Source: Bacteroidota bacterium
GTDB taxonomy: Bacteria > Verrucomicrobiota > Verrucomicrobiia > Methylacidiphilales > UBA1321
Assembly (NCBI GenBank): GCA_903970335.1
Contig: CAJCII010000131.1
Location: 1-36,267 of the forward strand
Length of the DNA stretch: 36,267 bases
Direction of reading: 5' to 3'
The notes below the pieces were generated by a model. It saw only the letters and a program-made list of their open reading frames with translations. It ran no database searches and was not told the DNA's origin. The number at the start of each line of letters is the position of its first letter. Within the stretch, counting starts at the first letter, position 1. A program made the position numbers and the translations under genes. Below, piece after piece: positions 3,172 through 21,415 of this stretch.

Positions 3172-3215
3172 ATAGCCTATCTGTTTCTCACGCTCTCCAA
3201 CGTGATCTAAACGTA

Positions 3216-3236
3216 CAGGTTACCAATTCAGGTTAC
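3216..3236. repeat. Paired CAGGTTAC direct repeats between integrase and tRNA
   Basis: CAGGTTAC occurs at 3216-3223 and again at 3229-3236, 13 bp apart start to start, in the 120-bp gap between the integrase start and tRNA-Val. Short direct repeats beside an integrase gene are typical of arm-type integrase or excisionase binding sites. They also lie where the integrase promoter should be. The function is inferred from position only. Confidence 0.35.
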
Positions 3237-3291
3237 AAGCCCATAATTGAAGAAAATATCTCACACGTAAGTCATTTGTAGATAAGTAATT

Positions 3292-3366
3292 GCGGAGTTA
3301 GCTTAGCGGTAGAGCAGGTCCTTTACACGGACAAGGTCGGGGGTTCGATCCCCTCACTCCGCACCA
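3292..3366 (+). tRNA. tRNA-Val, anticodon TAC, CCA encoded
   Basis: The sequence folds into a full cloverleaf. The acceptor is GCGGAGT pairing with ACTCCGC, and the D arm is GCTTAGCGGTAGAGC. The anticodon arm is GGTCC-TTTACAC-GGACA (the outermost pair is mismatched), with TAC at positions 34-36. The variable loop is short, and the T arm is GGGGG-TTCGATC-CCCTC. The discriminator A is followed by an encoded CCA at 3364-3366. The TAC anticodon reads GUA and related valine codons. The integrated element lies on the 5' side of the tRNA, whereas most tRNA-targeting elements lie on the 3' side. Confidence 0.95.
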
Positions 3367-3697
3367 TTTTCCGTTGACAATGTCCGAATCCGGGCAATTT
3401 GAACGGGGAGATGGGATCAATCCTGCCCGTTTCCACACGCACAAATTGGGGTCAGGGTTTGAGTTAACCTCGACTTCGGAAATTGCCTCTTGTTAGCGAC
3501 AAGCTCCTGGCTGACCAAGTTATCTCGGAAATTATCTATTGATTCGATAGACTTACTACGTCTACGCTCGATTCAGCTTCAAAAACAGATTATTAAATAA
3601 GTGAAACGTCGATTAAGTGGCTATCTATCAATGTCTAAGGAACCTTCTTTTGCCCAGTGCCTCGGTGGCGAGGGCAGAGCGACTGGCAGTGGAGTGA
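3367..3697 (+). promoter_or_regulatory. Intergenic region and probable promoter of the porin/exoprotein operon
   Basis: No gene is visible in these 331 bases. The central part is AT-rich (about 3520-3610), as expected for a promoter. It contains a short palindrome, TAGAC-TTACTAC-GTCTA, at 3548-3564. The nine bases GACTTACTA inside it recur in the promoter region at 18136-18144, which may be chance. No convincing -35/-10 pair could be assigned. Confidence 0.3.
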
Positions 3698-5677
3698 ATG
3701 GAAGCACCCTTCGTCATGAGTGATTCCATGTTCAGGGCAGGTCCTCTTTACCGGCAAAGACGTCGCACCGTTTTCCTGGTGTTCTGGTGTGCGATGGGTG
3801 CCGTGTCCGCGTTGGCTGACGATTCTGCCGCGCAGGTTCAGCGGCCGGACTTTAAAATGTCTTCCCCCACTCCTGTCCAAGCCCCGACTGGTTCAAACGA
3901 TCCAAACCCAGCTACGACTTCGGCAAACCCACCTCCCGTAAGCCCTTCGACCGACGCTGCCGCATCAGATCCACCCTCACAGAATGCAATGGTGAATCTA
4001 ATCAATCTGCTCGTGGCCCAACGTGTCATCACGAAGGACGCGGGCGACCGGCTGATCACTCAGGCCAATCAAGAGGCCGACTTGGCCCGCGCGCAAGCCG
4101 CAGCGACGCAAGCGACCGCGCAACGGGCTTTGGTCGCCCAAGAGACGCAACCTGCCCCCAGCCCTCCTCCGGTCCAGCCCACGGACGATGAGGTCCGCGT
4201 GACCTACGTTCCCGATGTGGTCAAGCAACAGATCACCGATCAAGTCACACAGAATGTTCTGCATGAGACACGGGAGGAGCAATCGAATCCGCCGGACACG
4301 ACCCCGGACTGGGTGAAACGCTTCCGCGTTACGGGCGACATCCGGGTCCGTTCCGAGGAGGACCTTTATCCCTCGGGAAATGCCATCGGTAACTTTACCA
4401 ATTTCAACTCCATCAACACGGGTTCCGGCTTTAACGTCAATAGCCTTACTCCTCTCTTGCCGCAGTATAATGCCGATCAGGACCGGACCCGGTTTCGGTT
4501 GCGTGCGCGGGTGGGTGCGGAAGTCGATTTGGGTAACGGTTTTACCTCGGGATTACGGATTGCGACCGGGTCCGACGATTCGCCGGTCTCGGAAAACCAG
4601 ACTCTCGGTGGGGCCAACTCGGTCCAAGGGGGTGATTTCGGCAAATATCAAATCTGGCTTGATCGGGGGTTTATCCGGTACGAACTGGGTAGCGATCCCA
4701 ACACAAATTTTGCCGTTACCATCGGTCGTTTCGACAATCCGTTTTTTCACACGAGCATGATCTGGTCGGACGACGTGGCCTTCGATGGCGCCGCTATCCA
4801 AGGCCGCTATCAGGTTGTGCCGGGAGTGACGCCATTCCTGACTGCCGGAGCCTTCCCCGTATTCAATACCGATCTCAACTTCTCCACGAACAGCTCGGCC
4901 AAATTCCAGAGTGAAGATAAATATCTTTTCGCGACGCAGGGCGGAACGACTTGGAAAATCAACCAGGACTTCAGCTTGAAGGGGGCGGCCGCCTATTACG
5001 ATTTCGAGAATATCCAAGGCCAGGTTTCCAGCCCGATTCTCAACGCAGGACTCAATGCGGGAAACACGGACGACAGCCGCCCGGCCTTTGCACAATATGG
5101 AAATACCTATATCGCGCTGCGCGACTTCGAGGATACGACGGTGGTTTCCGGCGGTACGGCCGAAAACGAATACTACGGCCTGGCCACTCCATTTCACGAA
5201 TTGGCCCTGACTGGGCAACTCGATTTTAGTCGCTTCGATCCATTCCACCTGTCTCTGGTTGGCGAAGTCGTGAAGAATCTCGCTTTCGACCGGAACGCGA
5301 TCATCGATAACGGTCCGGCATTTGACCCAGGACCGCAAAACAACACTCTCAACTCCGATCCCAATTCCTTTGTCGGAGGCGATACCGGATACCTGATTCG
5401 CCTGAATCTCGGCAAGGTCGATCTCGAAAAGCTCTGGGACTGGAACTTCAATCTGAGCTATCGCTACGTCGAATCCGACGCAACGGTCGATGGCTTTACC
5501 GATTCCGATTTCGGCGGAAGTCTCGCCGGAACCAATCTCAAAGGATACGTCCTGGGTGGCAATCTTGCCCTGTCCCCCCGCGTGTGGGCCAGTCTCCGCT
5601 GGATGAGCGCCGATGATGTGGCGGGTGCCGTTTACAAGAGCGATCTCATCCAATTCGATGTGAATGCCAAATTCTGA
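3698..5677 (+). CDS. Putative outer-membrane porin (Porin_5 type)
   Basis: A 659-residue exported beta-barrel protein. The N-terminus has a basic stretch and a hydrophobic core (RRRTVFLVFWCAMGAVSALA), with likely cleavage before DDSAAQ. A Pro/Ser/Thr-rich linker follows. Next comes a helical segment (MVNLINLLVAQRVITKDAGDRL), an Ala/Gln-rich coiled stretch and the segment VRVTYVPDVVKQQITDQV, an order typical of Porin_5 proteins. The rest, from about residue 205 (WVKRFRVTGDIRVRSE), shows alternating beta-strand patterns and ends in a terminal Phe (DVNAKF), the usual Bam recognition signal. It is longer than classical porins. ATG 3698 has GGAG only 3 nt upstream; in-frame ATGs at 3716 and 3728 are alternatives. 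It starts a three-gene operon with the coiled-coil protein 14 bp downstream. It could serve as a diffusion channel or help the exoprotein leave the cell; the latter is speculation. Confidence 0.85.
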   Translation: MEAPFVMSDSMFRAGPLYRQRRRTVFLVFWCAMGAVSALADDSAAQVQRPDFKMSSPTPVQAPTGSNDPNPATTSANPPPVSPSTDAAASDPPSQNAMVNLINLLVAQRVITKDAGDRLITQANQEADLARAQAAATQATAQRALVAQETQPAPSPPPVQPTDDEVRVTYVPDVVKQQITDQVTQNVLHETREEQSNPPDTTPDWVKRFRVTGDIRVRSEEDLYPSGNAIGNFTNFNSINTGSGFNVNSLTPLLPQYNADQDRTRFRLRARVGAEVDLGNGFTSGLRIATGSDDSPVSENQTLGGANSVQGGDFGKYQIWLDRGFIRYELGSDPNTNFAVTIGRFDNPFFHTSMIWSDDVAFDGAAIQGRYQVVPGVTPFLTAGAFPVFNTDLNFSTNSSAKFQSEDKYLFATQGGTTWKINQDFSLKGAAAYYDFENIQGQVSSPILNAGLNAGNTDDSRPAFAQYGNTYIALRDFEDTTVVSGGTAENEYYGLATPFHELALTGQLDFSRFDPFHLSLVGEVVKNLAFDRNAIIDNGPAFDPGPQNNTLNSDPNSFVGGDTGYLIRLNLGKVDLEKLWDWNFNLSYRYVESDATVDGFTDSDFGGSLAGTNLKGYVLGGNLALSPRVWASLRWMSADDVAGAVYKSDLIQFDVNAKF

Positions 5678-5691
5678 ACGATCCGATCGAC

Positions 5692-6438
5692 ATGCAAAAA
5701 AATCTAACCTTCATCGTTTTCTCGGTTGTTTTGGCTCTTTTTTCGTCCGTCACGACGCGAGCCGACGATTCATCAACGGAGGTGTCCACCACGGAGACTC
5801 GACTGCGGGAAGCTCTTAGAAGCACAACACTCGAGTGGCATCAGGCCCAAGAGCAGATTACATCACTTCAGGCTTCCCAAGCTGAAAACGACAAAGCGAA
5901 GGCCGATTTGCAGGCCAAAGTCGATGCCTTCAGCGCACAACTGGCAACTCTGACCCATCAAGCTAACGACGAGAAAGCGGCCTCGGACAAACTGGTGGCC
6001 GATCTGAACTCTAAAATTACCGAGCAAGCCACGCAGATCGAGCAGCTCAACGAAACGCTGAAACAATGGGAAGACGCCTATAATCGGGCGGTCCAGATCG
6101 CGGCAGCCAAGGAAGCGGAGCGGGTCAAATTCGCCATCAACGCCGCCGATCTCCAGCGAATCGTCGACGACCGGGAGAGCAAGAATTTCGCGCTCTACAA
6201 ACTCGGTAACGAAATCCTCAACCGGTACCAAGAGTATAGCCTCGGGGATGCCATCGAAGCCAAGGAACCGTTTGTCGGCGATACTCGTGCCGAGCTTGAA
6301 AACTTGGTTCAGGAGTACAAGAACAAGCTGCTCGACCAAGCGATTACCTCACGATCTCCGGCACAGGCGTCTCCCCCCACTGCGCCGATCCAAACCGCGT
6401 CGTCGGTTCCACCGGATAAACCGCCTATTCAGCCGTGA
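5692..6438 (+). CDS. Periplasmic coiled-coil protein of the exoprotein operon
   Basis: A 248-residue exported protein. A signal peptide (FIVFSVVLALFSSVTTRA, cleaved before DDSS) is followed by a long coiled coil from about residue 35 to 160, rich in Glu, Gln, Ala and Leu heptads. A more conserved-looking module then reads ALYKLGNEILNRYQEYSLGD and EPFVGDTRAELENLVQEYKN. The last 30 residues are a Pro/Ser/Thr-rich tail (PAQASPPTAPIQTASSVPP). From memory, proteins with the YxLGNEIL...EPFVG...LENLVQ pattern accompany very large haemagglutinin-type exoproteins in several Gram-negative bacteria; their function is not established. Its stop overlaps the GTG start of the giant gene (GTGA). A chaperone or tether role for the exoprotein is inferred from operon position. 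Confidence 0.75.
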   Translation: MQKNLTFIVFSVVLALFSSVTTRADDSSTEVSTTETRLREALRSTTLEWHQAQEQITSLQASQAENDKAKADLQAKVDAFSAQLATLTHQANDEKAASDKLVADLNSKITEQATQIEQLNETLKQWEDAYNRAVQIAAAKEAERVKFAINAADLQRIVDDRESKNFALYKLGNEILNRYQEYSLGDAIEAKEPFVGDTRAELENLVQEYKNKLLDQAITSRSPAQASPPTAPIQTASSVPPDKPPIQP

Positions 6439-9400
6439 AAACCCGAAGTTCATTGCCTCGTGGGTTGCCCCTGTGCGTCGTTGCCGCATTGGTAATGACT
6501 GGCGGCGGAACTGCACTGGCGAGCCCCTCGCTGAGAGGTGGTGCGATGGCGTCGCCACAGGGAGGGACACCGGCGTCACTTTCTCAGACGACCACGGCGG
6601 CTACGTTAGCGAACTCCCAGACGGCCCAGACAGCGGCACTCGTGCAGAATGCGCAGGCTTCGTTACAACACTCGATCCAAGCGCTCCAGGCAATGCAAGC
6701 CGCACAGGCTGCGGCCCGGTCCCAAGCTGGTGGCATCGCCAATTTGGGAATCGCCGGAGGAGCTTTACCCTCGGTTACCGACGGTCTTGCGGCGGGTGGG
6801 TTGGTGCCGGATTCGGGGCTTGCTGGTAACGGGATCGCCAATCCGGTGACGACCTGGGTCAATGCGAACACGCCGACACAAACAACAACGACCGCGAATG
6901 GCCAGACGAAGACGACCGTTACGGTGCAGCAGACCGGCCAGCAAGCGCTGCTCAATTGGACGACATTCAATGTCGGACAAAACACGACACTCTACTTCGA
7001 CCAGACTATGGGCGGGGCAAACGTGAATCAATGGGTTGCCATCAACAAGATCGCCCCATCGATTGCCCCCTCGCAAATTCTCGGTTCGATCGTTGCACCG
7101 GGACAAGTTTATGTGATCAATCAAAACGGCATCATTTTTGGAGAAGCGTCCCAAGTGAATACCGGCACGTTAGTCGCCTCATCGCTGCCGATCAACGACA
7201 ATCTTGTCTCGCGGGGCTTGCTCAACAACCCCGATCTGCAATTCCTTTTCTCCCAAGTAAACATCCCGAGCGGAACCCAAGGTCCCACCCCGGCCTTTAC
7301 CCCTGCGCCTGCGCCGACTGGCGGTAGTGTTCTAACCAAGGATGCCGCCGGTAATCAACAAATCATCGCCGCTGATGGTCAGGATGGAGATGTGGTGGTC
7401 GAACCAGGTGCCCAGCTCAGTTCCCCGGCGAACGCCGAGCAAGTGGGCGGAAGAATGGCGCTGATCGGCCCGAATGTGACCAATGCGGGTACGATTTCAA
7501 CGCCAGACGGTCAGACGATTCTTGCCGCCGGTCTTCAAGTCGGGCTGACCGCACACGACACGAATGACCCGACTTTGCGCGGTCTGGATGTCGCGATTGG
7601 CGAGATTTCCGATCCGTCCTACAACTCGGGCGAAACCGGAGTTGCCGGTACGTCGGCCAATACCGGACTGATCGAAGTACCGCGTGGCGACACGACCATG
7701 GCGGGCATGAACGTCAGCCAGAACGGGGTCATCGACAGCAGCACGTCGGTGGCACTGAACGGTCGAATCGACCTGTTGGCCGATTACAATTCCACTCCGC
7801 TGATCAACGGCCATGGCGGGTTCGCGGGGACGTCGGATTTCTATCCGCGATCTTCCGGCCAAGTTACCCTGGGAACGGACAGCCTCACGCAAATCCTTCC
7901 CGAAGTATCGAGCTCGGATACAGTCGTCGGAGCGCAATTGGCGTTGCCCTCGTTGTTGAATCTGCAAGGACTGAATATCAACCTCGAATCGAATGCCACC
8001 ATCCTTGCCCCCGGCGCGGTGGCCCCCACGACCACTCCGTCCGTCGATTCTGTCGGTGCCACGCTGGCGTCCGGCGTTAATCTACAAGCGGGGAGCTGGC
8101 TTTCCTTCAATAACGCTTATTCGTTCTTTAATGCCAACGGGCAAATCAATCTGGACCAGGGAGCTGCCATCGACGTTTCGGGATCGCAAAATGTCGAGGC
8201 ATCGGTCGCCGAGAATATCGTTTCGGCGCAATTGTTGGGCACGGAATTGGCCAACGATCCGCTCCAACAAAACGGCGCTTTACGGGGACAAACCATCGAG
8301 TTCGACCTTAGACAAACCGGGGTGAATGCCGATGGATCGACTTGGATCGGAACCCCGCTGGCCGATGTCTCCGGATATGCCAATTTGGTGCCGCACACGG
8401 TGGGTGAATTGACCGTCAATGGCGGCACGGTCGCTCTCGCGGCCGGAGATGCCGTAAATGTCGCTCCTGGCGCCATGATCAATGTTTCCGGAGGATGGAT
8501 CGACTACCAGGGCGGAAGGGTCCAGACGACGGAAGTGGTCTCCAATGGGCAGATTTACAATATCTCTGTGGCGCCGTCGAATCTGGTCTACAGCGGAGTC
8601 TATACCGGTTACACGGTGTCCTCGGCAAAATGGAACGTCAGCGAGACCTATCTCAACCCGCTGCTGAGCGGCACTCACTATGACGAAGGCTATCTTCAGG
8701 GTGGCGACAGCGGTTCTCTTTCCATTACCGCTCCGACGATGACGCTGAACGGAAGTATGTTTGCCAACAGCGTCTCGGGCATCTACCAGCGAACTTCCGA
8801 CTCGCAGCTCTCAAGTACCTACGCTGGAGCCAGCTTCCTGTCGATCGTTTTGGCCACCCAAGGCGTACCCGCCACCGGCACGCTTGCTCTCAATTTTCAG
8901 GCCCAAAATGAAGCCGTGGCGAACTACCCGACCTACTCTCCAAGCCCGCCAAAGATCGACTTTGGCGTCAGTCAAGCTGCGGGCGATCTCGTTCTTTCCC
9001 CCGATTTGATCGATACCGACGGTTTCGGTAATGTTACCATCGACAACGGCGATGGCACCATTTTTGTGCCAGCGGGCATTTCCCTGACAACCCCACCCGG
9101 TGGCAAGATTACGTTGGACGGGGCCAATATCGATATTGAGGGCAAGGTAAGCGCCCCCGGTGGAAGCCTGACTTTCGATGTCTACAATTATTCGCCCTAC
9201 GCCGATCAGAATTCACCCTATACGGGTAATCCTTTGTTAAGCACCCCGCCGGTCGATTCTACTCGGGGCCTTTTCAAGCTGGGAGGCTCGGCATCGTTGA
9301 GCGTAGCGGGCCTTATCGTCGATGAGCTCGATACGGCGTCCGGTCCGAATAGTCTGCCGCTACTCACGAATGGCGGAACGATTAAAATCGATAGTTTCAG

Positions 9401-12400
9401 CGCCAACCTCGCCACGGGAAGCTCCATCGATGTCTCCGGCGGTGTGACGGCGAGCGAAACCGGCAAAATCACCTACGGTGGCGGAGGCAGTCTTTCCATC
9501 CTGGCGGGGCAGGACCCGAATCTCCCTAGCCTGGTCGGAGGGAATCTCGTTTTGGGTTCCAGCCTCGAAGGCTATTCCGGCAGTAAAGGTGGCTCCCTCA
9601 CCATTCAAGCGCCGTTGGTTCAGATTGGGGGAACGGCGTCCGACCCGGCCAAGACGCTTTTGCTTGCCCCAGGTTTTTTCGATCAGGGTGGCTTTGCCAG
9701 TTTTACCCTCGACGGGTTGGGAGAAGTCGAACCGAATCAACCGAATGCCTCACTTTACCTTCCGGCGGTTTCCCTTGCACCGGGTACCACAATCGATCCC
9801 ATAGTCCAAGACTGGATGGCCGATTTGGTTAATGGCAATGTCGTCTTGACGCCCACGACTTATCCCATCGCATCGGAACGCACCCCGGCCGGTCTTACTT
9901 TTGGTGCCCTTGGAGTCGCGGGCTTTGGAGGCGGTATCGTCGTTCGGGGGGATTTTGTGGAGGGCCCCGGGGCGGTCATCGAAACCGATCCAAAGGGCAG
10001 CGTAACCATCACCGGAAATACGGTGAACGTGCAGGGAGATATCATCACACCCGGTGGTTCTATCTCAATTAGTGGCTCCAAAAACTCGACCGGCCTTTTC
10101 ACCTCCGATCCGCTCGATCCTCTGGTGACGGTCGATCTGGGGCCGAACAGCCTGTTGTCCGCCGCCGGTATCGTCGAGCCGACGGCCAATGCCTACGGTT
10201 ACAGTACCGGATCGGTTCTAAATGGCGGATCGATCGGTCTGAGCGGGAATATTCTTGCCGAAAGTGGCGCGGTACTCGATGTCTCCGGATCGAGTGGCGT
10301 TATCGACGTATCGCCGACACAATTGGGCACCGTCGGCAATTCGCTTTTCTCACCGTTTGTCCCCACGCGGGTCGATAGCAGCGGGGGATCGATCACGTTG
10401 GCAGGCGGACAGGAGCTCTATAGCGCAGCAACACTCTTGGGGGCGGCTGGCGGACCCTCGGCACCGGGTGGAAGCCTCACGGTGTCGTCCCAGCTTTTCG
10501 ATCCGTCACAAGGTCTGGTCCCAACCACGCCTTTGGATGCGACTCTGAAAGTGACCCAGAGCGCTCTCGCCTATTCGGCCAATGGCATTGGACACATCGT
10601 CGCGGTGAACGGGACCACCGCTGCATTGGGTTATTTTGACGCCGACAGTTTTGCTTCGAGCGGTCTCGACGCGCTGACTCTAGGCGGAACGGTGCAATTT
10701 TCTGGTCCGGTCACGATTAGCGCGAATCGCAGTTTGAGCTTGGGTGGCAGCGGCGTCATTTATGCCGATAGTGCGGTCGACCTTATCGCTCCCTATGTGA
10801 AACTGGGCCAGGCTTTCCAAGGACCTTTAACTCAGGCGCAACAACAGCTTTCCACTTATTTTGACTCCAACAGTAATGCCGTCGCAGTCGATCCGACCTA
10901 CGGCACCGGCAGCATCGCGGTCACCGCCGGTGGCCTGATCGACGTTGGGAATCTCTCCTTACAGAATATCGGTGGCCTTGGCCTGACGGCGAGCAATGGC
11001 GATATCCGTGGCGACGGCACCTTGGATGTCGCAGGAACCCTTACGCTTACCGCCGGTCAAATCTATCCGACGACCGACACGACCTTCACCATCGCCGCTT
11101 ACGATCACGGTGGGACCCCAGGCTCGGTGACGATTTTGCCCTTCGGTACCCGGCAACTTCCTCTGTCCGCTGGCGGCACTTTGAACGTGTATGCATCCGA
11201 CATCATCCAGGAAGGAGTTTTGCGGGCACCGATTGGGACAATCAATCTCGGTAGCGGCATCAGGAGTACCAGTCCGATCGATCCGCTTTCGGGGCAAGCT
11301 TTCGACTCAACGCAGAGCGTAACGCTGGCCTCGGGCAGCGTCACCTCCGTCTCGGCAGTCGACTCTGCTACCGGACAAGATCTCACGATTCCCTACGGGA
11401 CGCTTCTTGACGGTGTTTCCTGGATCGATCCGGCGGGCAACGACATAACGGTTGCCGGTAATGGGCCAAACGCGGTGCCTGCCAAAGCGATCAACGTCTC
11501 GGGTGCCTCCGTCATTGACCAGGCCGGAGCAATGATCGATATTAGCGGCGGGGGCGATCTCTATGCCTACCGCTTCGTTTCCGGAACGGGCGGAACGAAC
11601 GACATTCTGGCCTCCAACAGCAGCTTTGCGGTTCTTCCAGGTTACTCCGCAGACTACGCACCCTTTTATCAGGCTGCCGGTTCCACGGCGGATTATTCCA
11701 ATCCGACGCTGGCAGTTGGCAGCCAAATCTATCTTAACGCGAGCAACGGATTACCGGCAGGGGTCTATACTCTGCTGCCCGCCCGCTATGCCCTCTTGCC
11801 GGGAGCCTTTCTGGTTACGCCTACCGGTGCCGTACCTCTCGCCCAAAGTGTCCTGCGCCCCGATGGATCGAGCCTTGTTTCCGGCTATCTCTTCAATGGA
11901 CTCGATTCGACGCAGACCGCCGCTCCGTTGTTCACCTCATTCGAAGTCGACTCGCAAGGAGTCGTCAATTCACGGGCCGAGTACGACAGTTACTCTGCCA
12001 ATACGTTTTTGAGCCAGAATGCGGCCGCACAGGGCACTTCGGTTCTGCTCCCCGCAGATGCGGGACAGTTGGTGTTCGCCGCGGCCAACGCCATGACTAT
12101 CCACGGCACGGTATCGTCCCAAGCGCCTGCCGGTGCGCTTGGCAGTCAGGTCGATCTTGCCAGTCCCAGTAACATCCTGATTTCGGGACCAAATACCGAT
12201 TTGAGTAATATCGGTGCGGGTACGCTGGTGCTCGATGCTTCCGATCTGAGTGCGTTTGGCGCCGAAAGCTTATTGATTGGCGGCTACCGCACGACAACCT
12301 CCCAAGGAACAACGGTGACGGTGACGACCAGTGCTGTTACCGTCGATAATGCCGGTGCCGCGCTGACCGGACCCGATGTTATTCTGGCCTCGAACGACAC

Positions 12401-15400
12401 ACTGACGCTGGAGGCAAATGCGCAGGTGGAGCAATCGGGAACGCTTTCCAGTCCAGCCGAAACGCTCCTCTTCGGTAGCTCGACTCGCGCGGGATCCGGA
12501 GACGGCGTTGTGCTGCGGGTCGGCAGCGATGCTTCCGCGCAAATCATCCGCTCCGGCGTTAATGCTTCCCTGGGGCCGACCCTCAGCCTAGGAGCAGACA
12601 CGGAGATTTCGGGCGCGAGCTTGATTCTGGATTCGACTTCCGCGACTTCACTCGACCCCACAGCGGACCTGAGTGGAGATGCGGTATCGATTAATAGCGG
12701 CCAGATTAGTTTGGCGCTCGATGGCAGCCAGCCGACGTCCGGGTTGGTGCTTTCCGGCCCGGCCCTTGCCAGCCTGCAAGCTTCTGTCCAAGCGTTGTCT
12801 TTGCGTAGTTATTCCTCGATCGATATTTATGAAAATGGATCCGGAGTTATCGGCAGCGCGGCGGATGGATCGGGCAATTATCAAGTCAAAAACCTGACCT
12901 TGGATGCGGATGAAATTCGTGGTTTTAATGGGGGATCTGTCACGATCAACGCGCAAAGCGTTACGCTTGAGAACACCCTCGGTGGCTCGCCGCCGGCGCT
13001 TGGTGGCCTTCCTGCCAACGGGGCGTTGACGGTCGATGCCGGTACCATTCAACTCGGCGGCGGCTCCGGGGTGAACGCTCTGAACATCGATGGTTACGCG
13101 AACCTGAATTTGCATGCAAACGGTGGGATTTTGGTTGCGGCAACGCCATCGGCGGCAAAAGACTCGTCCGGCAATCCCATCGAGGGTACCGCCAGTCTCG
13201 CCACCGCAGGCAACCTGCAAATAGACACGCCTGTCATCACCGGTGCGACCGGGGCCAGCCTGACGCTTGCCGCGAACGACGCATTGACCATTAATTCTTT
13301 GGGCAGCGGATCGACAGCGACGGTTGTCGGCGGTCTGGGCGCAACCCTGAATCTGGTCGGTGCGAGCGTAACGGAAAACAGCCTGATTCAAGTACCGAGT
13401 GGACATCTCGGCATCGAAGCGACTGCCGCCGGTGGGAATCTCACGGTGGGAGGAACCCTTCAGGCCGGTGGCACGGCGCAGACCTTCAACGACTTGACCG
13501 AGTATACCTCCGGCGGCCAGATCAGTCTGACTTCGGAGAGCGGTTCGGTTATTCTGAATTCGGGAAGCACGGTTTCGGTTGCGGACAATCCGGAAGGTGG
13601 TAACGCGGGCAGTCTGAAGGTTGGTGCCGCCGATGGTCTCTTCGTCTATCAAGGCAGCGCCGTCGAAGCACATGGCGGCGTGGCCGGACAGGCGGGCGCG
13701 TTTTCTTTGGACGTGGGGAGCATTCCCGGAGGCAGCTTGCTCCCTCTCGATTCATTCCTCGGCGCCGGGGGCTTTACGCAGTCGATTTCAATCCGAGACC
13801 GGAACGACCTCGCTGTCTCGGTCGATGGAACGGTTCGCGCGGGTTCCTATAACCTGTCTGCCGATCAGGGGTCGATCACTGTTACCGGTCTCATCAATGC
13901 CTCGAATGTCGCAGCCACGGATCCGGCTGGAAACCCGATCCTCATCGGTGGCACCATCGATCTCGAAGCCTACGGTAGCGTGACCTTGTCCTCCGGTTCG
14001 GAACTGACCGTGGCGGGACAAAACTTTAGCAATGCAGGCCAGGGCGGCTCGATCACGCTGGCCGCAGGATCGGCAACAGGCGGTAATTTTAGCACGAGCG
14101 CCGTTGTCGATCTTCAGAAAGGTTCCACCCTCGATCTGAAGGTCGCGGACAACTCCAGCGTCAGCGCCGCCGCGGGCGACTTTACCGGTACGGTGCTTAT
14201 CAGCGCACCCCAGAATGCGGGGGGGACCGATCTCCAGGTCACTCCGATCGAGGGTACCATCCTGAATGCCTCGAACATCGTGGTTGAAGGCTACAAGCTT
14301 TACACTCCGGCGGGAGGCTCGATCGACAGCGTGGAGGGAAGCGCAGCCACCAGCACGCCAAACGACGGAACGGTTTATGGCGACGCCGAGGGCTTTGCCG
14401 CCAACACGGACACCATTCTCTCCAGGCTGCTCACCGGAACTCCCAACGCCAGTCAGGCTTCGCTCTTCCGGATAACCCCCGGAGCCGAAATCATCAGCAC
14501 CACCGGCGATCTGACCCTCGCCAACGATTGGGACCTTTCCTCTTTCCGTTTCGGTCCGGACAACACGCCCGGCATTCTTACCATCCGGGCCGCGGGTAAC
14601 TTGATTTTCAACGGCAGCCTGAGCGATGGTTTTAGCGATGCAACGGATACCGCAACCCTATTGCCGCAAAGCACGACGCTTCCGCTCAATGATCAGTCGT
14701 GGTACTATAACCTGGTGGCAGGGGCGGATTTTTCTGCCGCCGATTTTAATCAAGTCCTGCCGAATACCGAAGTTTACGATCCCAACACGGGACTGGCAGA
14801 TCAAGGAACCGCCACCGGTTCGCTGGAACTGGGTAACGTCGTGACGCAAAATGACGGCAATGCCACGGCTTCGGGGGGAGCCAACGCCAAGACCAGCGCG
14901 GCGCTCAGCGGCTATTACCAGGTGATTCGCACCGGCACGGGAAATATCGACGTTGCGACAAGTGGCGATGTCCTTCTGCAAAACCAATTCGCCACGATCT
15001 ATACCGTCGGAGCGCAGGCCTCCGCCTTGGCCAATTTCGACACGCCGCAACTTCAAATTGGTACCAAACAGTATTATCCCGCCCAATACAGCCTGGCGGG
15101 TGGCAACGTCGCCATTTCGGCACTGGGCGATATTGCGCATATTACGGAAAATAGCAGCGGTACCCTCGTTCTCGATTCCGAAAAGGAACTTCCCGACAAC
15201 TGGCTTTATCGCCGGGGCTACGTCGATTCTGCCAGCCAGTTCGGGGCATCCAAGTACGACACCAATGCCTCGACTTCGTGGTGGATCGATTTCAGCAACT
15301 TCTTCGAAGGCATCGGCACCCTGGGAGGCGGCAATGTCACGTTGAGCGCAGGGCATGACGTGAGCAATGTCGATGCGGTGGCGACCACCAATGCCCGCAT

Positions 15401-17948
15401 GACCTGGCAAACCGCAACGGGCGACCAGAATGCTGTCGACCAGACGTTGGTTGAGCTTGGCGGCGGCAATGTTGCGGTGCAGGCGGGCAACGATATAAAT
15501 GGCGGCGTCTATTATGTCGAATGGGGGCAGGGGACGCTTGAAGCGGGCAATAGCATCATTACCAACTTCACCCGTTCCCCTTCTCTCGGCACGATCACGC
15601 TGCCGGCCACCGTCGATAATTCCGCGACGTGGCTACCCACCACGCTTTTCCTCGGCGAAGGCGACTTCGCTGTCTCGGCCGAAAACGAACTGCTCCTCGG
15701 GCCGGTCGCCAATCCCTTCCTTCTGCCCCAGGGTGTGGACAACACCTATTGGGACAAGACCTATTTTTCGACCTATGCCACCACCGATGCCGTGGATGTC
15801 GCCTCGCTCAACGGCTCGGTGACACTCCGGGAAGACGCCACCATGTTCAGTAGCACCACGGCCACGCCTTTGCTGCAAAACTGGCTTCAGTACGTCGATC
15901 TCTTTTCCTCGAGTCCTCGATCGGTTTCCTATTACCAACCCTGGTTGAATATCACCGAGACGAGCGTCGCGCCATTTTCGACGGTGGATGCCTTGGAGCC
16001 TTCCAGCCTGAACGTTACCGCGTTTTCGGGTGCTATCGATACGGTTGGCAACCTGACTCTTTCCCCGTCTCCCACCGGTACGATCAATCTGCTCGCCCAA
16101 GGTTCCATTAACTCCCTTCAGGCAAACGGCACCAGCGGTGTCATCGACAGTTCGACGACAAACAATGTGTCGAACACGACCTGGAGCTCCAGCACCATCG
16201 ATCTCTCCGACGCCAATCCCAGCGCCATCCCCGGCGTTTCTTCGCCCTATGCCTATGAGGAGGTGGCGGGAACGTTGCCAGCCGCGGCTAAGACCACCGG
16301 AGGTTCCATTTCTGTCGGCGGGGTCACGGTTCCCGTTCAACTCGATCTCTCCTTCATCAATGACTTGTTTGCGGAAACGGGTTCGACGGAAGGTTCCAAT
16401 GGCGTCTTGCAGACCAAGTTGAAATTGCATGCCTCGATCGACGGAGAACCGCTCCATGTCAACGATCCCGATCCGGTTCACCTTTATGCTGAGAATGGGG
16501 ACATCTCCGGACTAACGCTTTTCTCGGCTAAAGCGACCCGGGTGGTTGCCGGACAAGACATTACCGACATTGCCCTCTATTTGCAGAACGTCGGCTCGAA
16601 TGACATCAGCCTGGTTACAGCGGGCCGGGACATCGTCGCCTATGACGCCAATTCTCCCCTCTTGGTGGACGCTCAGTCCTCCGGTAACGTCCTCGATTTG
16701 GGAAGCTCCGCCCTGGCGGGAGACATAGCGATCGGCGGCCCCGGCACACTCGAGGTGTTGGCCGGTCGCAATCTCAATCTGGGCGTTGCGCCCAACGACC
16801 CGGATGGCACCGGCGTTGGAATCTCCAGCATCGGCAACCAAAGCAATCCGGTACTCCACTTTGCCGGGGCCGATATCGTTGCCGCAGCCGGCATCGGCCC
16901 ATCGTCCGGTTTGGATTCCAGCCCGCTGGACTTTGCCGCCTTCGAGTCGCAGTTTTTGGTGCCCGGCGCGTTAGCTTCGGCCCTTTATCTGCCCGATCTC
17001 GGTGCGCTTCTGGGGTTGACGGGCGCTTCCGACGATCAGGTCTGGAACGCTTTCGATCAATTGCCAAAGGAGAACCAGGACGACCTGGCGCTCGATCTTT
17101 TCTACCTGGTCCTGCGCGATGCCGGTCGCGATCATAACAACGGCACCGGCAGCGGTTACGCCTCCGGTTTCGCGGCCATTTCGGCGCTCTTCCCGGATAC
17201 CACCGGGCAGGGCGATATTTCGCTGACCTCGCGCGAAATCAAAACGACCAGCGGCGGCAACATCAGTCTCCTTGCGCCGTCCGGACAACTCGAGGTCGGG
17301 TTGAATGTCGCCGGTACCCAGCCGGTCGATCAAGGAATCCTGACCGAGGACGGTGGCAATATCTCGATCTTCACCCAGGGTAATGTCGATGTGGGCACGT
17401 CCCGCATCTTCACGCTAAATGGCGGCAATGAAATAATCTGGTCTTCCCAGGGCGATATCGATGCCGGTGCCTCCTCGAAAACCGTGCAGTCGGCCCCGCC
17501 CACACGCGTTCTCGTCGATCCTCAGAGCGGTGCCATCGAGACCGATCTGGCTGGCCTGGCCACGGGCGGGGGTATCGGCGTCCTGGAAACCGTACCTGGA
17601 GAGCCCCCATCGGACGTCGACTTGATCGCTCCGAATGGCACCATCAACGCCGGTGATGCCGGGATCCGCGTCTCGGGCAATCTCAACATTGCCGCCCTGC
17701 GGGTGCTTAACGCGGGCAATATCCAGGTGGGGGGCAAGTCCTCCGGTGTCCCGACCGTGGCCGCTCCTAATACGGCAGGATTGGCGGCGGCATCCAGTGC
17801 TGCCGGGTCGACGTCCAACGCCAGCGATCAGGCCTCGAATGAGGCCCGCAACCGTGCCACCCAGCAAAATCATCCTGACCTTCCGTCCATCATTACCGTG
17901 CAGGTTCTCGGTTACGGCGGTGGTTCCGATGATGACGGTGGTAACTAG
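6435..17948 (+). CDS. Giant filamentous-haemagglutinin-type exoprotein (3,837 aa)
   Basis: A very large secreted beta-helix protein. I chose the GTG at 6435 because it overlaps the upstream stop by 4 bases and opens directly on a signal peptide (LPLCVVAALVMTGGGTALA, cleaved before SPSLRGG). Residues about 55-100 are an Ala/Gln-rich helix. Residues about 155-260 form the haemagglutination-activity (TPS) domain, with FNVGQNTTLYFDQ, VNQWVAINKI, SQILGSI and GQVYVINQNGIIFG. The rest is a long run of Gly/Ser/Asn/Asp-rich beta-helix repeats with recurring phrases such as LTLAAN, GGSITL and IDVSGG. The extreme C-terminus reads HPDLPSIITVQVLGYGGG followed by an acidic tail. No autotransporter barrel or LPXTG/PEP-CTERM anchor is visible, and no TpsB-type secretion partner is encoded nearby. 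Adhesion or matrix function is likely; the target is unknown. Confidence 0.9.
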   Translation: MKTRSSLPRGLPLCVVAALVMTGGGTALASPSLRGGAMASPQGGTPASLSQTTTAATLANSQTAQTAALVQNAQASLQHSIQALQAMQAAQAAARSQAGGIANLGIAGGALPSVTDGLAAGGLVPDSGLAGNGIANPVTTWVNANTPTQTTTTANGQTKTTVTVQQTGQQALLNWTTFNVGQNTTLYFDQTMGGANVNQWVAINKIAPSIAPSQILGSIVAPGQVYVINQNGIIFGEASQVNTGTLVASSLPINDNLVSRGLLNNPDLQFLFSQVNIPSGTQGPTPAFTPAPAPTGGSVLTKDAAGNQQIIAADGQDGDVVVEPGAQLSSPANAEQVGGRMALIGPNVTNAGTISTPDGQTILAAGLQVGLTAHDTNDPTLRGLDVAIGEISDPSYNSGETGVAGTSANTGLIEVPRGDTTMAGMNVSQNGVIDSSTSVALNGRIDLLADYNSTPLINGHGGFAGTSDFYPRSSGQVTLGTDSLTQILPEVSSSDTVVGAQLALPSLLNLQGLNINLESNATILAPGAVAPTTTPSVDSVGATLASGVNLQAGSWLSFNNAYSFFNANGQINLDQGAAIDVSGSQNVEASVAENIVSAQLLGTELANDPLQQNGALRGQTIEFDLRQTGVNADGSTWIGTPLADVSGYANLVPHTVGELTVNGGTVALAAGDAVNVAPGAMINVSGGWIDYQGGRVQTTEVVSNGQIYNISVAPSNLVYSGVYTGYTVSSAKWNVSETYLNPLLSGTHYDEGYLQGGDSGSLSITAPTMTLNGSMFANSVSGIYQRTSDSQLSSTYAGASFLSIVLATQGVPATGTLALNFQAQNEAVANYPTYSPSPPKIDFGVSQAAGDLVLSPDLIDTDGFGNVTIDNGDGTIFVPAGISLTTPPGGKITLDGANIDIEGKVSAPGGSLTFDVYNYSPYADQNSPYTGNPLLSTPPVDSTRGLFKLGGSASLSVAGLIVDELDTASGPNSLPLLTNGGTIKIDSFSANLATGSSIDVSGGVTASETGKITYGGGGSLSILAGQDPNLPSLVGGNLVLGSSLEGYSGSKGGSLTIQAPLVQIGGTASDPAKTLLLAPGFFDQGGFASFTLDGLGEVEPNQPNASLYLPAVSLAPGTTIDPIVQDWMADLVNGNVVLTPTTYPIASERTPAGLTFGALGVAGFGGGIVVRGDFVEGPGAVIETDPKGSVTITGNTVNVQGDIITPGGSISISGSKNSTGLFTSDPLDPLVTVDLGPNSLLSAAGIVEPTANAYGYSTGSVLNGGSIGLSGNILAESGAVLDVSGSSGVIDVSPTQLGTVGNSLFSPFVPTRVDSSGGSITLAGGQELYSAATLLGAAGGPSAPGGSLTVSSQLFDPSQGLVPTTPLDATLKVTQSALAYSANGIGHIVAVNGTTAALGYFDADSFASSGLDALTLGGTVQFSGPVTISANRSLSLGGSGVIYADSAVDLIAPYVKLGQAFQGPLTQAQQQLSTYFDSNSNAVAVDPTYGTGSIAVTAGGLIDVGNLSLQNIGGLGLTASNGDIRGDGTLDVAGTLTLTAGQIYPTTDTTFTIAAYDHGGTPGSVTILPFGTRQLPLSAGGTLNVYASDIIQEGVLRAPIGTINLGSGIRSTSPIDPLSGQAFDSTQSVTLASGSVTSVSAVDSATGQDLTIPYGTLLDGVSWIDPAGNDITVAGNGPNAVPAKAINVSGASVIDQAGAMIDISGGGDLYAYRFVSGTGGTNDILASNSSFAVLPGYSADYAPFYQAAGSTADYSNPTLAVGSQIYLNASNGLPAGVYTLLPARYALLPGAFLVTPTGAVPLAQSVLRPDGSSLVSGYLFNGLDSTQTAAPLFTSFEVDSQGVVNSRAEYDSYSANTFLSQNAAAQGTSVLLPADAGQLVFAAANAMTIHGTVSSQAPAGALGSQVDLASPSNILISGPNTDLSNIGAGTLVLDASDLSAFGAESLLIGGYRTTTSQGTTVTVTTSAVTVDNAGAALTGPDVILASNDTLTLEANAQVEQSGTLSSPAETLLFGSSTRAGSGDGVVLRVGSDASAQIIRSGVNASLGPTLSLGADTEISGASLILDSTSATSLDPTADLSGDAVSINSGQISLALDGSQPTSGLVLSGPALASLQASVQALSLRSYSSIDIYENGSGVIGSAADGSGNYQVKNLTLDADEIRGFNGGSVTINAQSVTLENTLGGSPPALGGLPANGALTVDAGTIQLGGGSGVNALNIDGYANLNLHANGGILVAATPSAAKDSSGNPIEGTASLATAGNLQIDTPVITGATGASLTLAANDALTINSLGSGSTATVVGGLGATLNLVGASVTENSLIQVPSGHLGIEATAAGGNLTVGGTLQAGGTAQTFNDLTEYTSGGQISLTSESGSVILNSGSTVSVADNPEGGNAGSLKVGAADGLFVYQGSAVEAHGGVAGQAGAFSLDVGSIPGGSLLPLDSFLGAGGFTQSISIRDRNDLAVSVDGTVRAGSYNLSADQGSITVTGLINASNVAATDPAGNPILIGGTIDLEAYGSVTLSSGSELTVAGQNFSNAGQGGSITLAAGSATGGNFSTSAVVDLQKGSTLDLKVADNSSVSAAAGDFTGTVLISAPQNAGGTDLQVTPIEGTILNASNIVVEGYKLYTPAGGSIDSVEGSAATSTPNDGTVYGDAEGFAANTDTILSRLLTGTPNASQASLFRITPGAEIISTTGDLTLANDWDLSSFRFGPDNTPGILTIRAAGNLIFNGSLSDGFSDATDTATLLPQSTTLPLNDQSWYYNLVAGADFSAADFNQVLPNTEVYDPNTGLADQGTATGSLELGNVVTQNDGNATASGGANAKTSAALSGYYQVIRTGTGNIDVATSGDVLLQNQFATIYTVGAQASALANFDTPQLQIGTKQYYPAQYSLAGGNVAISALGDIAHITENSSGTLVLDSEKELPDNWLYRRGYVDSASQFGASKYDTNASTSWWIDFSNFFEGIGTLGGGNVTLSAGHDVSNVDAVATTNARMTWQTATGDQNAVDQTLVELGGGNVAVQAGNDINGGVYYVEWGQGTLEAGNSIITNFTRSPSLGTITLPATVDNSATWLPTTLFLGEGDFAVSAENELLLGPVANPFLLPQGVDNTYWDKTYFSTYATTDAVDVASLNGSVTLREDATMFSSTTATPLLQNWLQYVDLFSSSPRSVSYYQPWLNITETSVAPFSTVDALEPSSLNVTAFSGAIDTVGNLTLSPSPTGTINLLAQGSINSLQANGTSGVIDSSTTNNVSNTTWSSSTIDLSDANPSAIPGVSSPYAYEEVAGTLPAAAKTTGGSISVGGVTVPVQLDLSFINDLFAETGSTEGSNGVLQTKLKLHASIDGEPLHVNDPDPVHLYAENGDISGLTLFSAKATRVVAGQDITDIALYLQNVGSNDISLVTAGRDIVAYDANSPLLVDAQSSGNVLDLGSSALAGDIAIGGPGTLEVLAGRNLNLGVAPNDPDGTGVGISSIGNQSNPVLHFAGADIVAAAGIGPSSGLDSSPLDFAAFESQFLVPGALASALYLPDLGALLGLTGASDDQVWNAFDQLPKENQDDLALDLFYLVLRDAGRDHNNGTGSGYASGFAAISALFPDTTGQGDISLTSREIKTTSGGNISLLAPSGQLEVGLNVAGTQPVDQGILTEDGGNISIFTQGNVDVGTSRIFTLNGGNEIIWSSQGDIDAGASSKTVQSAPPTRVLVDPQSGAIETDLAGLATGGGIGVLETVPGEPPSDVDLIAPNGTINAGDAGIRVSGNLNIAALRVLNAGNIQVGGKSSGVPTVAAPNTAGLAAASSAAGSTSNASDQASNEARNRATQQNHPDLPSIITVQVLGYGGGSDDDGGN

Positions 17949-17971
17949 AAATTGGAGACTCCCGCAATTTT
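17949..17971 (+). terminator. Weak hairpin after the exoprotein gene
   Basis: Immediately after the TAG, AAATTG (17949-17954) pairs with CAATTT (17965-17970) around a 10-nt loop, followed by one further T and then CGG. The stem is short and AT-rich and the U-run is poor, so this is at best a weak terminator or a 3'-end stabiliser. Confidence 0.3.
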
Positions 17972-18135
17972 CGGAATCGAGGTCCGGAAAATAACACATT
18001 AAGTAGATCGATGAACTTGGATAAGCGCCGTATTTCGCTGAAAATGAAAAATTGGAGCTATTCATAAGTAATTGAAAAGCAGATTGATAAATCCAAAATG
18101 TCCCGCTCTTCGATACAATCCACTATTTGCCTATT

Positions 18136-18162
18136 GACTTACTATGGTAATGTCGGTAAGTC
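18136..18162. promoter_or_regulatory. Inverted repeat in the PEP-CTERM gene promoter region
   Basis: GACTTAC (18136-18142) and its exact reverse complement GTAAGTC (18156-18162) are separated by 13 bases. The half-site centres are 20 bp apart, about two helical turns, as for a dimeric regulator. The left half overlaps TTGACT, a good -35 candidate. The site lies 60 bp upstream of the start codon in a 273-bp gene-free stretch (17949-18221) that otherwise holds nothing recognisable. Confidence 0.4.
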
Positions 18163-18221
18163 TGTCCCGTTAAGTTGAAGTGTCTTCGTTAACCAACAAC
18201 CCAACAAAGAAAGAAAACCAA

Positions 18222-19073
18222 ATGAAACTAGCTAAAAAAATGTCTGCAGCCTTGGCCCTGGCCTTGGTCGCAGCTCTGGGAACCTCTGCCCATGCGCAGA
18301 GCGTTTCTTACAATGAAGGGGACTTGCTCCTCGGCTTTAACCAAACCGGTGCCGCCGACAACTACGTGGTCGATCTCGGGGCCGTATCGAATTTTATCAA
18401 TGCTACGGGCTCGCTTACCTTCGATCTCTCGACCAGCGACTTGACCAGCACTTTCGGTTCGAGCTGGGCGAGTAACAGCCAGACCAACCTGGTCAACTGG
18501 GGTGTCATCGGAGGCAGCGATGTGACCAATACCATCACCGTAGGCGGGGACACTCTCCAAGCAAACACGCTTTTCTATACGATTGGCGAGCAAACACTCG
18601 GCAACCAATCGACCGCTCCGACGGAGAAGTCGAATGCCCTACAGAAAAGCTACAACGGCAATATTAATTCCAACTTTGCCACGGGCTCGGGTGGATTCAG
18701 CGGGACTACGCCTACGTCAGGCAGCACGGGCAGTCTCCAAGCGATCAACCAGACCGCTGGCGCGACCAATAGCTGGAGTTATGAATTGAGTAGCAAAACC
18801 TATTTTGGCACTGGCAACAATATCGAGCAACCGACCACGGGTGCGGCTGACGGTCCGACCGACTCGGCCTTGGATCTGTACGAGTTGACGCCGACCAACG
18901 CCTCGATCACTAAGCCTACCACCTATCTGGGGAGCTTCTCCCTTGCCAGTAGTGGGGTCTTGACCTTTACCAATGCTTCCGCCGTTCCGGAGCCTTCCAG
19001 CTATGCGCTGATCGGATTGGGACTTCTCTTCCTGGTCTGGCGTCTTCGCGCAAAAAGCGCCTCTGCCCTCTAA
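18222..19073 (+). CDS. PEP-CTERM sorting domain protein
   Basis: A 283-residue secreted protein. A signal peptide (KKMSAALALALVAALGTSAHA, cut before QSVS) is followed by a Ser/Thr/Asn/Gly-rich beta body. The body opens with YNEGDLLLGFNQTGAADNYV, a pattern seen in many Verrucomicrobiota PEP-CTERM proteins. The C-terminus carries the tripartite sorting signal: VPEPSS, the hydrophobic span YALIGLGLLFLVW and a basic cluster RLRAK. It should be processed by an exosortase in the inner membrane; none is encoded in this window. The ATG at 18222 is preferred over the upstream frame start at 18180 because the signal peptide begins here. The leader is A/C-rich (AACCAACAAC at 18191-18200) without a good Shine-Dalgarno sequence, and the same ten bases precede the next gene. 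Function beyond surface display is unknown. Confidence 0.88.
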   Translation: MKLAKKMSAALALALVAALGTSAHAQSVSYNEGDLLLGFNQTGAADNYVVDLGAVSNFINATGSLTFDLSTSDLTSTFGSSWASNSQTNLVNWGVIGGSDVTNTITVGGDTLQANTLFYTIGEQTLGNQSTAPTEKSNALQKSYNGNINSNFATGSGGFSGTTPTSGSTGSLQAINQTAGATNSWSYELSSKTYFGTGNNIEQPTTGAADGPTDSALDLYELTPTNASITKPTTYLGSFSLASSGVLTFTNASAVPEPSSYALIGLGLLFLVWRLRAKSASAL

Positions 19074-19080
19074 AAAAATC

Positions 19081-19123
19081 TTGGAGCGGGCGAAGGCCTC
19101 CCGTGCCACCTCGCTCGCTCTAA
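19081..19123. other. Intercistronic hairpin between the PEP-CTERM and PstS-like genes
   Basis: TTGGAGCGGGCGA (19081-19093) pairs with TCGCTCGCTCTAA (19111-19123) over 13 positions, two of them G-T, with a 17-nt loop. On the + strand no U-run follows. On the - strand it is followed by a run of seven T (from the A-run at 19073-19079). On the + strand it may be a processing or stabilising hairpin that sets the ratio of the two flanking secreted proteins. Confidence 0.45.
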
Positions 19124-19151
19124 ACCAACAACAACCAAAACAAAAATTAAA

Positions 19152-20504: not shown

Positions 20505-20562
20505 TCGCCGAAGTTTGATCTAAGTCTGAGTTTCGTAGATTAAGTTGATAAAAATGAGGGCT

Positions 20563-20597
20563 GGCGCGGGTGATTTCACCCGCGCCGGTTTCTCTTT
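20563..20597 (+). terminator. Rho-independent-type terminator
   Basis: GGCGCGGGTG (20563-20572) and CACCCGCGCC (20577-20586) form a perfect 10-bp GC-rich stem with an ATTT loop, followed by GGTTTCTCTTT. It lies 59 bp after the PstS-like gene and 17 bp before the next start codon. It may therefore end most transcripts and let some through to the small exported protein. Confidence 0.75.
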
Positions 20598-20603
20598 GGC
20601 GAA

Positions 20604-21407: not shown

Positions 21408-21415
21408 GGCCTGTT

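What the first reader, a model, noticed from the sequence alone, without database searches (positions are those of the whole stretch)
6435..17948. 3,837-residue TPS-domain exoprotein with no TpsB partner in reach
The haemagglutination-activity domain normally requires a dedicated POTRA-barrel TpsB protein. Here the upstream neighbours are a Porin_5 barrel and a periplasmic coiled-coil protein, both tightly linked (14-bp gap and 4-bp overlap). Either the partner is elsewhere or these two proteins form a different export or anchoring system for giant beta-helix proteins. The conserved-looking C-terminus LPSIITVQVLGYGGG plus acidic tail may be a recognition tag.
Basis: partly seen in the sequence, partly recalled or inferred. 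Interest (0 to 1): 0.55.

Follow-up and report, generated by a model that had tools for sequence, protein, structure and literature searches.

The report
Giant adhesin borrowing a distant exporter
This giant surface protein belongs to a known bacterial export pathway whose missing outer-membrane gate is encoded elsewhere in the same genome, and the two genes beside it are regular companions of that gate in relatives, so the locus looks like a partial copy of a larger, poorly understood secretion system rather than a new one.

Summary
In detail: 6435-17948 is an intact 3,837-aa frame with TPS and DUF3739 domains and a conserved C-terminal tail, behind a Porin_5 gene (14-bp gap) and a coiled-coil gene (4-bp overlap), with no TpsB in the window. 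But the partner exists: the one TpsB found in this genome lies on contig C191, in a full paralogous locus (TpsB, ExbB fusion, ExbD, TonB, Porin_5, coiled coil, giant TpsA). In 286 genomes of the class, strong DUF3739 and strong Porin_5 hits occur in the same 43 genomes and none of the other 243; TpsB of this type in 42 of the 43. Among porin/coiled-coil loci held with enough upstream sequence, only the window's lacks TpsB and Ton genes in cis. Most likely it is a satellite TpsA exported in trans. Gene order matches the Pseudomonas aeruginosa Pdt locus, whose Ton, porin and PA0697 genes are in print as uncharacterised. The porin barrel model is closest to OmpM1; the coiled coil is modelled as one long helix. 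Why a type V system, held to need no energy source, carries a Ton set, a porin and a rod stays open.

The parts
3698..5677 (+). Porin_5 outer-membrane porin, 659 aa; N-terminal helices then about 16 strands in the model
   Evidence: Pfam E 1.8e-192; AlphaFold2 model of aa 95-659, pLDDT 81.6, pTM 0.74; nearest solved fold OmpM1, Z 26.0 over the barrel
5692..6438 (+). Coiled-coil rod protein, 248 aa; signal peptide judged by eye, so probably periplasmic
   Evidence: one helix of 148 residues in the single-chain model, pLDDT 85.6, pTM 0.44; 46 places in 41 of 286 genomes at >=69 bits, own two included
6435..17948 (+). Giant TpsA exoprotein, 3,837 aa
   Evidence: 40% identical over 2,743 columns of the best local alignment with the C191 TpsA
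6588..6719 (+). Pre-TPS Q/A-rich, probably helical, extension of TpsA (about aa 52-95)
   Evidence: motif matched in 67 of 76 distinct N-termini, 0.7% in shuffles; pattern tuned on the same sequences
6873..7223 (+). TPS secretion domain (aa 147-263)
   Evidence: Pfam E 1.7e-13; matches EtpA, 2odl adhesin and heme/hemopexin-binding protein chains in PDB
17421..17756 (+). DUF3739 domain (aa 3663-3774)
   Evidence: Pfam E 5.4e-33; 55 strong places in 43 of 286 genomes
17880..17945 (+). Conserved C-terminal motif LPSIITVQVLGYGGG plus acidic end
   Evidence: 25 of 30 class C-termini match strictly, 4 are close variants, 1 is cut by a contig end

Best explanation
The window locus is a satellite copy of a Pdt-type two-partner secretion system. 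Shown: the TpsA frame is intact and carries a TPS domain; the assembly encodes one TpsB of the matching subfamily, in a full seven-gene paralogous locus on contig C191; porin, coiled coil and TpsA of the window group in trees with full loci of congeners. Inferred: the TpsA crosses the inner membrane by Sec, its TPS domain is bound by the POTRA domains of the C191 TpsB in trans, it is threaded through the TpsB barrel and folds outside as a beta-helix. The porin and the rod protein are inferred to be envelope accessories that hold, guide or serve the giant protein, helped by the ExbB-ExbD-TonB set encoded on C191. The C-terminal LGYGGG motif is inferred to be the end that leaves last or stays as a recognition or anchoring end; neither TpsA of this genome has a cysteine beyond its N-terminal signal region, so an HMW1-type disulfide anchor is not possible.
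For: TpsB on C191: POTRA_2 E 1.7e-14, ShlB E 2.3e-14, match to CdiB 6wim E 1.2e-8. It is the only TpsB found here by a ShlB family search and a protein search. C191 order: TpsB, DUF2341-LamG-ExbB, ExbD, TonB, Porin_5, coiled coil, TpsA 4,237 aa. 43 of 43 genomes with strong DUF3739 have strong Porin_5 and 0 of 243 others do; coiled coil in 41 of 43 and 0 of 243. TpsB like that of C191 (E<=1e-70) in 42 of 43. TpsB in 39 of 46 non-own porin loci, the other 7 cut at contig ends; in 58 of 80 named loci, the other 22 having the porin within 3.2 kb of the contig end. 6 of 43 genomes, this one included, have more strong DUF3739 proteins than TpsBs of this type, G147 set aside. The window groups with G217 and G240 loci, support 0.998 (porin), 0.948 (coiled coil), 0.968 (TpsA). 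A review passage says some TpsBs secrete more than one TpsA (PMC5422565).
Against: No interaction or secretion was tested. The assembly is 83.7% complete in 243 contigs, so a second TpsB may be missing, or lie left of the contig end. The two TpsAs are only 40% identical in their best local alignment, and the C191 TpsA does not match the pre-TPS motif. The excess of TpsA over TpsB in other genomes also rests on draft assemblies, and the third DUF3739 place of G217 is a partial frame (1,018 aa). The roles of porin, rod and Ton rest on gene association and single-chain models alone. In P. aeruginosa, transposon mutants of tpsA, tpsB, the tonB homologue PA0695 and PA0696 stayed as virulent as wild type in a zebrafish test (PMC2729926), which shows no function for them there.
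Confidence: 0.72

Rival explanations
1. The porin and coiled coil export or anchor the giant protein without any TpsB.
For: They are tightly coupled to this TpsA and lack a TpsB in cis; here they travel with TpsA without the Ton and TpsB genes.
Against: In the other loci held with enough upstream sequence, porin and coiled coil sit with TpsB; the porin model is an ordinary porin barrel and Pfam finds no POTRA domain in it; the TPS domain is kept.
Confidence: 0.05
2. A dedicated second TpsB exists for this locus, in the unassembled part of the genome or left of the contig end.
For: 83.7% completeness; congener G217 has two full loci, each with its own TpsB.
Against: TonB, ExbD and ExbB, which normally fill the stretch before the porin, are absent from the 3.7 kb held; a tRNA and an integrase gene lie there instead.
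Confidence: 0.15
3. The window locus is a decaying partial duplicate whose protein is no longer exported.
For: The 5' half of the operon is missing and an integrase gene is close by.
Against: The 3,837-aa frame, the TPS domain, DUF3739, the tail motif and the two upstream genes are intact.
Confidence: 0.1
4. The system is mainly for nutrient capture: TpsA is a surface trap, the porin an uptake channel and the Ton set a motor, somewhat as HxuA-HxuB-HxuC serve haem uptake. This can be true together with export in trans.
For: P. aeruginosa Pdt genes are under phosphate-starvation control (PMC7035377, PMC4971064, passages); the nearest porin structure, OmpM1, is both tether and uptake channel (PMC10628300, title and passages); HxuABC precedent (PMC5422565, passage).
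Against: No ligand or substrate is known; no TonB-dependent receptor was seen among the window and C191 genes scanned with Pfam, not all frames of which were scanned; a diffusion porin needs no Ton energy.
Confidence: 0.25

Closest known systems
Pseudomonas aeruginosa Pdt locus (PA0690, PA0692-PA0699; PUMA3/VreI regulon)
   Same: Order tpsB, exbB2, exbD2, tonB4, putative outer-membrane porin PA0696, PA0697 (signal peptide; likened to channel-forming colicins), with a giant TpsA nearby; PMC7035377 calls the Ton set uncharacterised and PA0696-PA0700 unknown. Plasmid loci of Methylosinus, Klebsiella and Cupriavidus show ShlB, ExbB, ExbD, TonB, putative porin and a hypothetical protein in that order by annotation.
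   Different: The window copy lacks tpsB and the Ton genes, and in window and C191 no gene lies between coiled coil and TpsA, where the Methylosinus locus has PPIase and YbjN genes. Sequence homology to PA0692-PA0697, and of the plasmid hypothetical proteins to the coiled coil, was not tested.
FhaB/FhaC and other type Vb systems
   Same: TPS domain, POTRA-barrel TpsB, giant exoprotein; one TpsB for several TpsAs has precedent (PMC5422565).
   Different: Classic pairs have no Ton set, porin or rod (recalled). Here the TPS domain starts at about aa 147 of the frame; in classic TpsAs it follows the signal peptide directly (recalled).
HMW1 and HxuA C-terminal anchors
   Same: A conserved or functional C-terminal end in a TPS exoprotein (PMC5422565).
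   Different: No cysteine pair here, so no disulfide lock.
OmpM1 of Veillonella parvula
   Same: Porin barrel fold, best match by a clear margin (Z 26.0 against 20.5 for the next protein); N-terminal helices before the barrel in the model, as OmpM1 has a coiled-coil stalk.
   Different: The structural match covers the barrel, not the helices; Pfam finds no SLH domain in this porin.

Membership tests
Two-partner secretion (type Vb) | TPS domain in the exoprotein | tested here: met
   Pfam E 1.7e-13, NCBIfam adhes_NPXG E 1.4e-14, PDB chains EtpA, 2odl, 4i84
Two-partner secretion (type Vb) | A TpsB with POTRA and barrel in the genome | tested here: met
   C191 588-aa protein, POTRA_2 and ShlB; one copy found
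Two-partner secretion (type Vb) | tpsB next to tpsA (usual, not required) | tested here: not met
   none in the window
Two-partner secretion (type Vb) | Beta-helical exoprotein | not tested
   the TpsA was not modelled
Two-partner secretion (type Vb) | Secretion of TpsA depends on TpsB | not testable with these tools
   needs mutants
Pdt-type locus | tpsB-exbB-exbD-tonB-porin-coiled coil order, C191 locus of this genome | tested here: met
Pdt-type locus | the same order, window locus | tested here: not met
   only porin, coiled coil and tpsA are present
Pdt-type locus | Sequence homology to PA0690-PA0697 | not tested
   no P. aeruginosa sequence was fetched; the link rests on gene order and annotation in PMC7035377
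Contact-dependent inhibition (CdiA) | Variable C-terminal toxin domain | tested here: not met
   the C-terminus is DUF3739 plus a conserved tail
OmpM | Porin barrel fold | tested here: met
   8bys_A Z 26.0, rmsd 3.3 over 309 residues of a predicted model
OmpM | SLH domain | tested here: not met
   no SLH hit at E 0.01 in Pfam

The most novel reading that the evidence does not exclude
This is one arm of an envelope-spanning, proton-driven variant of type V secretion: a Ton motor, a periplasmic rod of about 22 nm and a stalked porin work with TpsB to export or hold the giant proteins, through the pre-TPS helix at one end and the LGYGGG tail at the other, and one such machine serves several TpsAs, some with their own porin and rod.
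Probability: 0.18. Interest if true: 0.8.

Novelty: new variant of a known kind. Interest (0 to 1): 0.45.

Why it matters
[quoted passage not shown] Here a TPS class comes with its own ExbB-ExbD-TonB set, a porin and a rod: strong porin hits in 43 of 43 genomes that have the class and 0 of 243 others. Either the Ton set energises part of this route, or these genes do a second job on the exported protein. The window locus keeps porin and rod with a TpsA but without TpsB and Ton genes, which hints that porin and rod are tied to TpsA itself. By gene order the same set is in P. aeruginosa with unknown function, so gene removals in a laboratory strain would test it directly.

Tried and rejected
Rejected: a tRNA-bounded insertion. 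tRNA-Val (3292-3366) and an integrase gene (2080-3171, minus) lie left of the locus, but the last 23 bases of the tRNA recur nowhere else in the window within 3 mismatches, and one search found 3 short direct-repeat families and 1 palindrome, none bounding the locus. Rejected: remnants of TpsB or Ton genes in the window. The coiled-coil model found no solved fold at E <= 0.001, as expected for a lone helix; its weak NCBIfam hits, far below their cut-offs, are to coiled-coil proteins. Phmmer found no solved relative of the porin.

Slips and selections. One search read minus-strand loci in the wrong orientation; replace it. The count 38 of 38 was selected by the motif itself; one search gives the fair count on the 30 loci that one search returned, of 55 strong places. 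A first pattern for the pre-TPS helix was built wrongly and matched 1 of 88; the corrected one was tuned on sequences already seen. Of 101 TpsA rows, 11 had no NxNG landmark (some are partial, some long) and 2 began inside the domain; all 13 were dropped, and duplicates merged, to leave 76. 'Strong' cut-offs (DUF3739 >=58 bits, Porin_5 >=311, coiled coil >=69) were set after seeing gaps in the scores. Dropped below them: 18 of 61 genomes with a DUF3739 hit, 99 of 142 with a Porin_5 hit, 3 of 44 with a coiled-coil hit. One strong porin (G048) is half a domain at a contig end. Relatedness was not corrected in the Fisher tests. The trees hold 28 chosen loci of 59, midpoint-rooted. The 14 control genomes had no hit to any of the three families, so they test nothing about linkage.

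A result against a uniform order: in Methylomagnum the porin hit (31% identity over 75% of the query) has no ExbB, ExbD or TonB listed beside it, and its ShlB and haemagglutinin genes lie about 8 kb away on the other strand. The Cupriavidus stretch shows no TpsA; a Tn3 transposase follows. Five of 12 plasmid hits were opened; the Burkholderia stretch bears no annotation.

Print: searches of this library (openly licensed papers only) listed no paper that, by title, abstract start or term counts, ties porin and coiled coil to TPS as a class; unlisted hits were not looked at. PMC2729926, PMC7035377, PMC4971064, PMC5422565 and PMC10628300 were seen as passages only.

Full report
What was claimed and whether it is there. 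Pfam adds a DUF3739 domain near the C-terminus. No TpsB was found in the 36,267-base window, which is G000:C131:1-36267.

The partner. A genome-wide search with the ShlB family found one TpsB, on contig C191. It is a 588-aa protein with a POTRA_2 domain and a ShlB barrel match. A protein search with it found no second copy in this genome. C191 holds a paralogous full locus on its minus strand: TpsB 19995-21761, a DUF2341-LamG-ExbB fusion 18161-19987, ExbD 17718-18131, TonB 16998-17699, Porin_5 about 14935-16959, coiled coil 14232-14921 and a 4,237-aa TpsA 1443-14156. The two TpsAs are 40% identical over 2,743 columns of the best local alignment; the coiled coils 38% over 226. Both TpsAs end in LPSIITV[QD]VLGYGGG and an acidic end.

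How general it is. In 286 genomes of the class, strong DUF3739 hits lie in 43 genomes (55 places), strong Porin_5 hits in 43 (48 places) and the coiled coil in 41 (46 places). The DUF3739 and porin sets are the same 43 genomes; the coiled coil was not found in two of them, G048 and G090, where the porin lies at a contig end. In 46 of 48 porin places the coiled coil follows directly, at -1 to 187 bp. TpsB like that of C191 was found in 42 of 43; the exception, G147, has its porin locus cut inside ExbB at a contig end. The 43 genomes span 21 genera. A close relative of the C191 ExbB was found in all 6 genomes tested, partial at a contig end in G147; in G121 it lies about 32 kb from TpsB on the same contig. 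Weaker hits that I set aside are listed under Tried and rejected.

Gene order. Among 46 non-own porin loci, 39 have TpsB and 7 are cut at contig ends. A scan of GTDB genomes with the porin alignment gave 214 relatives, of which the best 80 were kept. Of these 80, 58 have TpsB, and the 22 without have the porin within 3.2 kb of the contig end; the coiled coil is in 77, and the other 3 have at most 250 bases after the porin; TonB is missing in four loci cut at the porin and in L104, which is G121. The named set overlaps the first. The window locus, with 3.7 kb upstream, is the only one of these that shows porin and coiled coil with neither TpsB nor Ton genes despite the room for Ton genes. By record title 5 of the 80 are Alphaproteobacteria, one is called Betaproteobacteria and the rest are Verrucomicrobiota.

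One TpsB for several TpsAs. Six of 43 genomes have more strong DUF3739 places than TpsBs of this type: G000, G086, G123, G240 and G272 with 2 to 1, G217 with 3 to 2, one of the three being partial. G147, with two TpsAs and its TpsB not assembled, is set aside. Ten TpsA stretches were fetched in which no porin or coiled coil was seen (L090-L099); some start at contig ends. In trees of porin, coiled coil and TpsA the window groups with loci of G217 and G240 (support 0.998, 0.948, 0.968); in the TpsA tree that clade holds one of the two G217 loci and also the lone TpsA of G240. So it most likely descends from a full locus that lost its 5' half. No remnant was found.

Structures. The porin model (aa 95-659; pLDDT 81.6, pTM 0.74) has N-terminal helices and, by my count of the DSSP line, 16 barrel strands. 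The best solved match is OmpM1 of Veillonella parvula, Z 26.0, clear of the next protein at 20.5; it covers the barrel. OmpM1 is a trimeric porin with a periplasmic coiled-coil stalk (PMC10628300, passages). Whether the helices here form such a stalk was not tested. The coiled-coil protein is modelled as one helix of 148 residues, about 22 nm if straight, and short helices behind it; pTM is low (0.44) and its oligomer was not modelled.

Two further marks of the class. Between signal peptide and TPS domain the TpsAs have a Q/A-rich, probably helical, extension; the motif fits 67 of 76 distinct N-termini, the window's included and the C191 one not. The C-terminal motif fits 25 of 30 examined class C-termini strictly and 4 loosely, one being cut, and both plasmid TpsAs examined. 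The 30 are those that the tool returned of 55 strong places.

What is known. P. aeruginosa has pdtB, exbB2, exbD2, tonB4, PA0696 (putative porin), PA0697, PA0698 (YbjN) and PA0699 (PpiC) with the giant PdtA nearby; PdtA and PdtB are called a functional TPS system, the Ton set uncharacterised and PA0696-PA0700 unknown (PMC7035377, passages). One promoter serves phdA to PA0701 (PMC4971064, passage). Llamas et al. note genomes with several tpsA clusters and one tpsB cluster with exbBD and PA0696 homologues, and saw no loss of virulence in mutants of four of these genes in zebrafish (PMC2729926, passages). Annotated plasmid loci in Methylosinus, Klebsiella and Cupriavidus have the same core order; the TpsA gene lies after the porin end in the first, before tpsB in the second, and is not in the stretch in the third. 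Methylomagnum differs. So the locus class is in print for P. aeruginosa; its mechanism is not, as far as my searches reach.

Verdict. The TpsA belongs to type Vb secretion by its domain and is most likely exported in trans. The porin and coiled coil probably do not replace TpsB, yet they are regular parts of this TPS class. Their role, and that of the Ton set, is the open question.

Noticed in passing
28603-30030 and 29966-31672: Type 2A encapsulin shell gene (SrpI-like, with cNMP-binding domain) whose frame overlaps an aminotransferase class V gene (cysteine desulfurase by recall), near a sulfate permease gene at 26522-28291.
   Followed up: no
2080-3366: Integrase gene (minus strand) next to tRNA-Val, just left of the porin operon; no second copy of the tRNA end in the window.
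   Followed up: partly
18180-19073: A PEP-CTERM protein gene follows the giant gene.
   Followed up: no
G000:C100 (L011:6374-14216) and G000:C124 (L005): Two other TPS-domain proteins, divergent from a CHASE2-cyclase gene and from a frame that looks FecR-like by eye; they are another type than the DUF3739 proteins, and no second TpsB for them was found in this assembly.
   Followed up: partly
L182:481-21904: A haemagglutinin-ShlB-ExbB-ExbD-TonB-porin-hypothetical-YbjN-PPIase locus on a plasmid typed as conjugative in Klebsiella quasipneumoniae, with arsenic resistance genes further along.
   Followed up: no
L104 / G121 C156: A congener has TpsB directly before porin and coiled coil, with its ExbB about 32 kb away near the TpsA.
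   Followed up: partly
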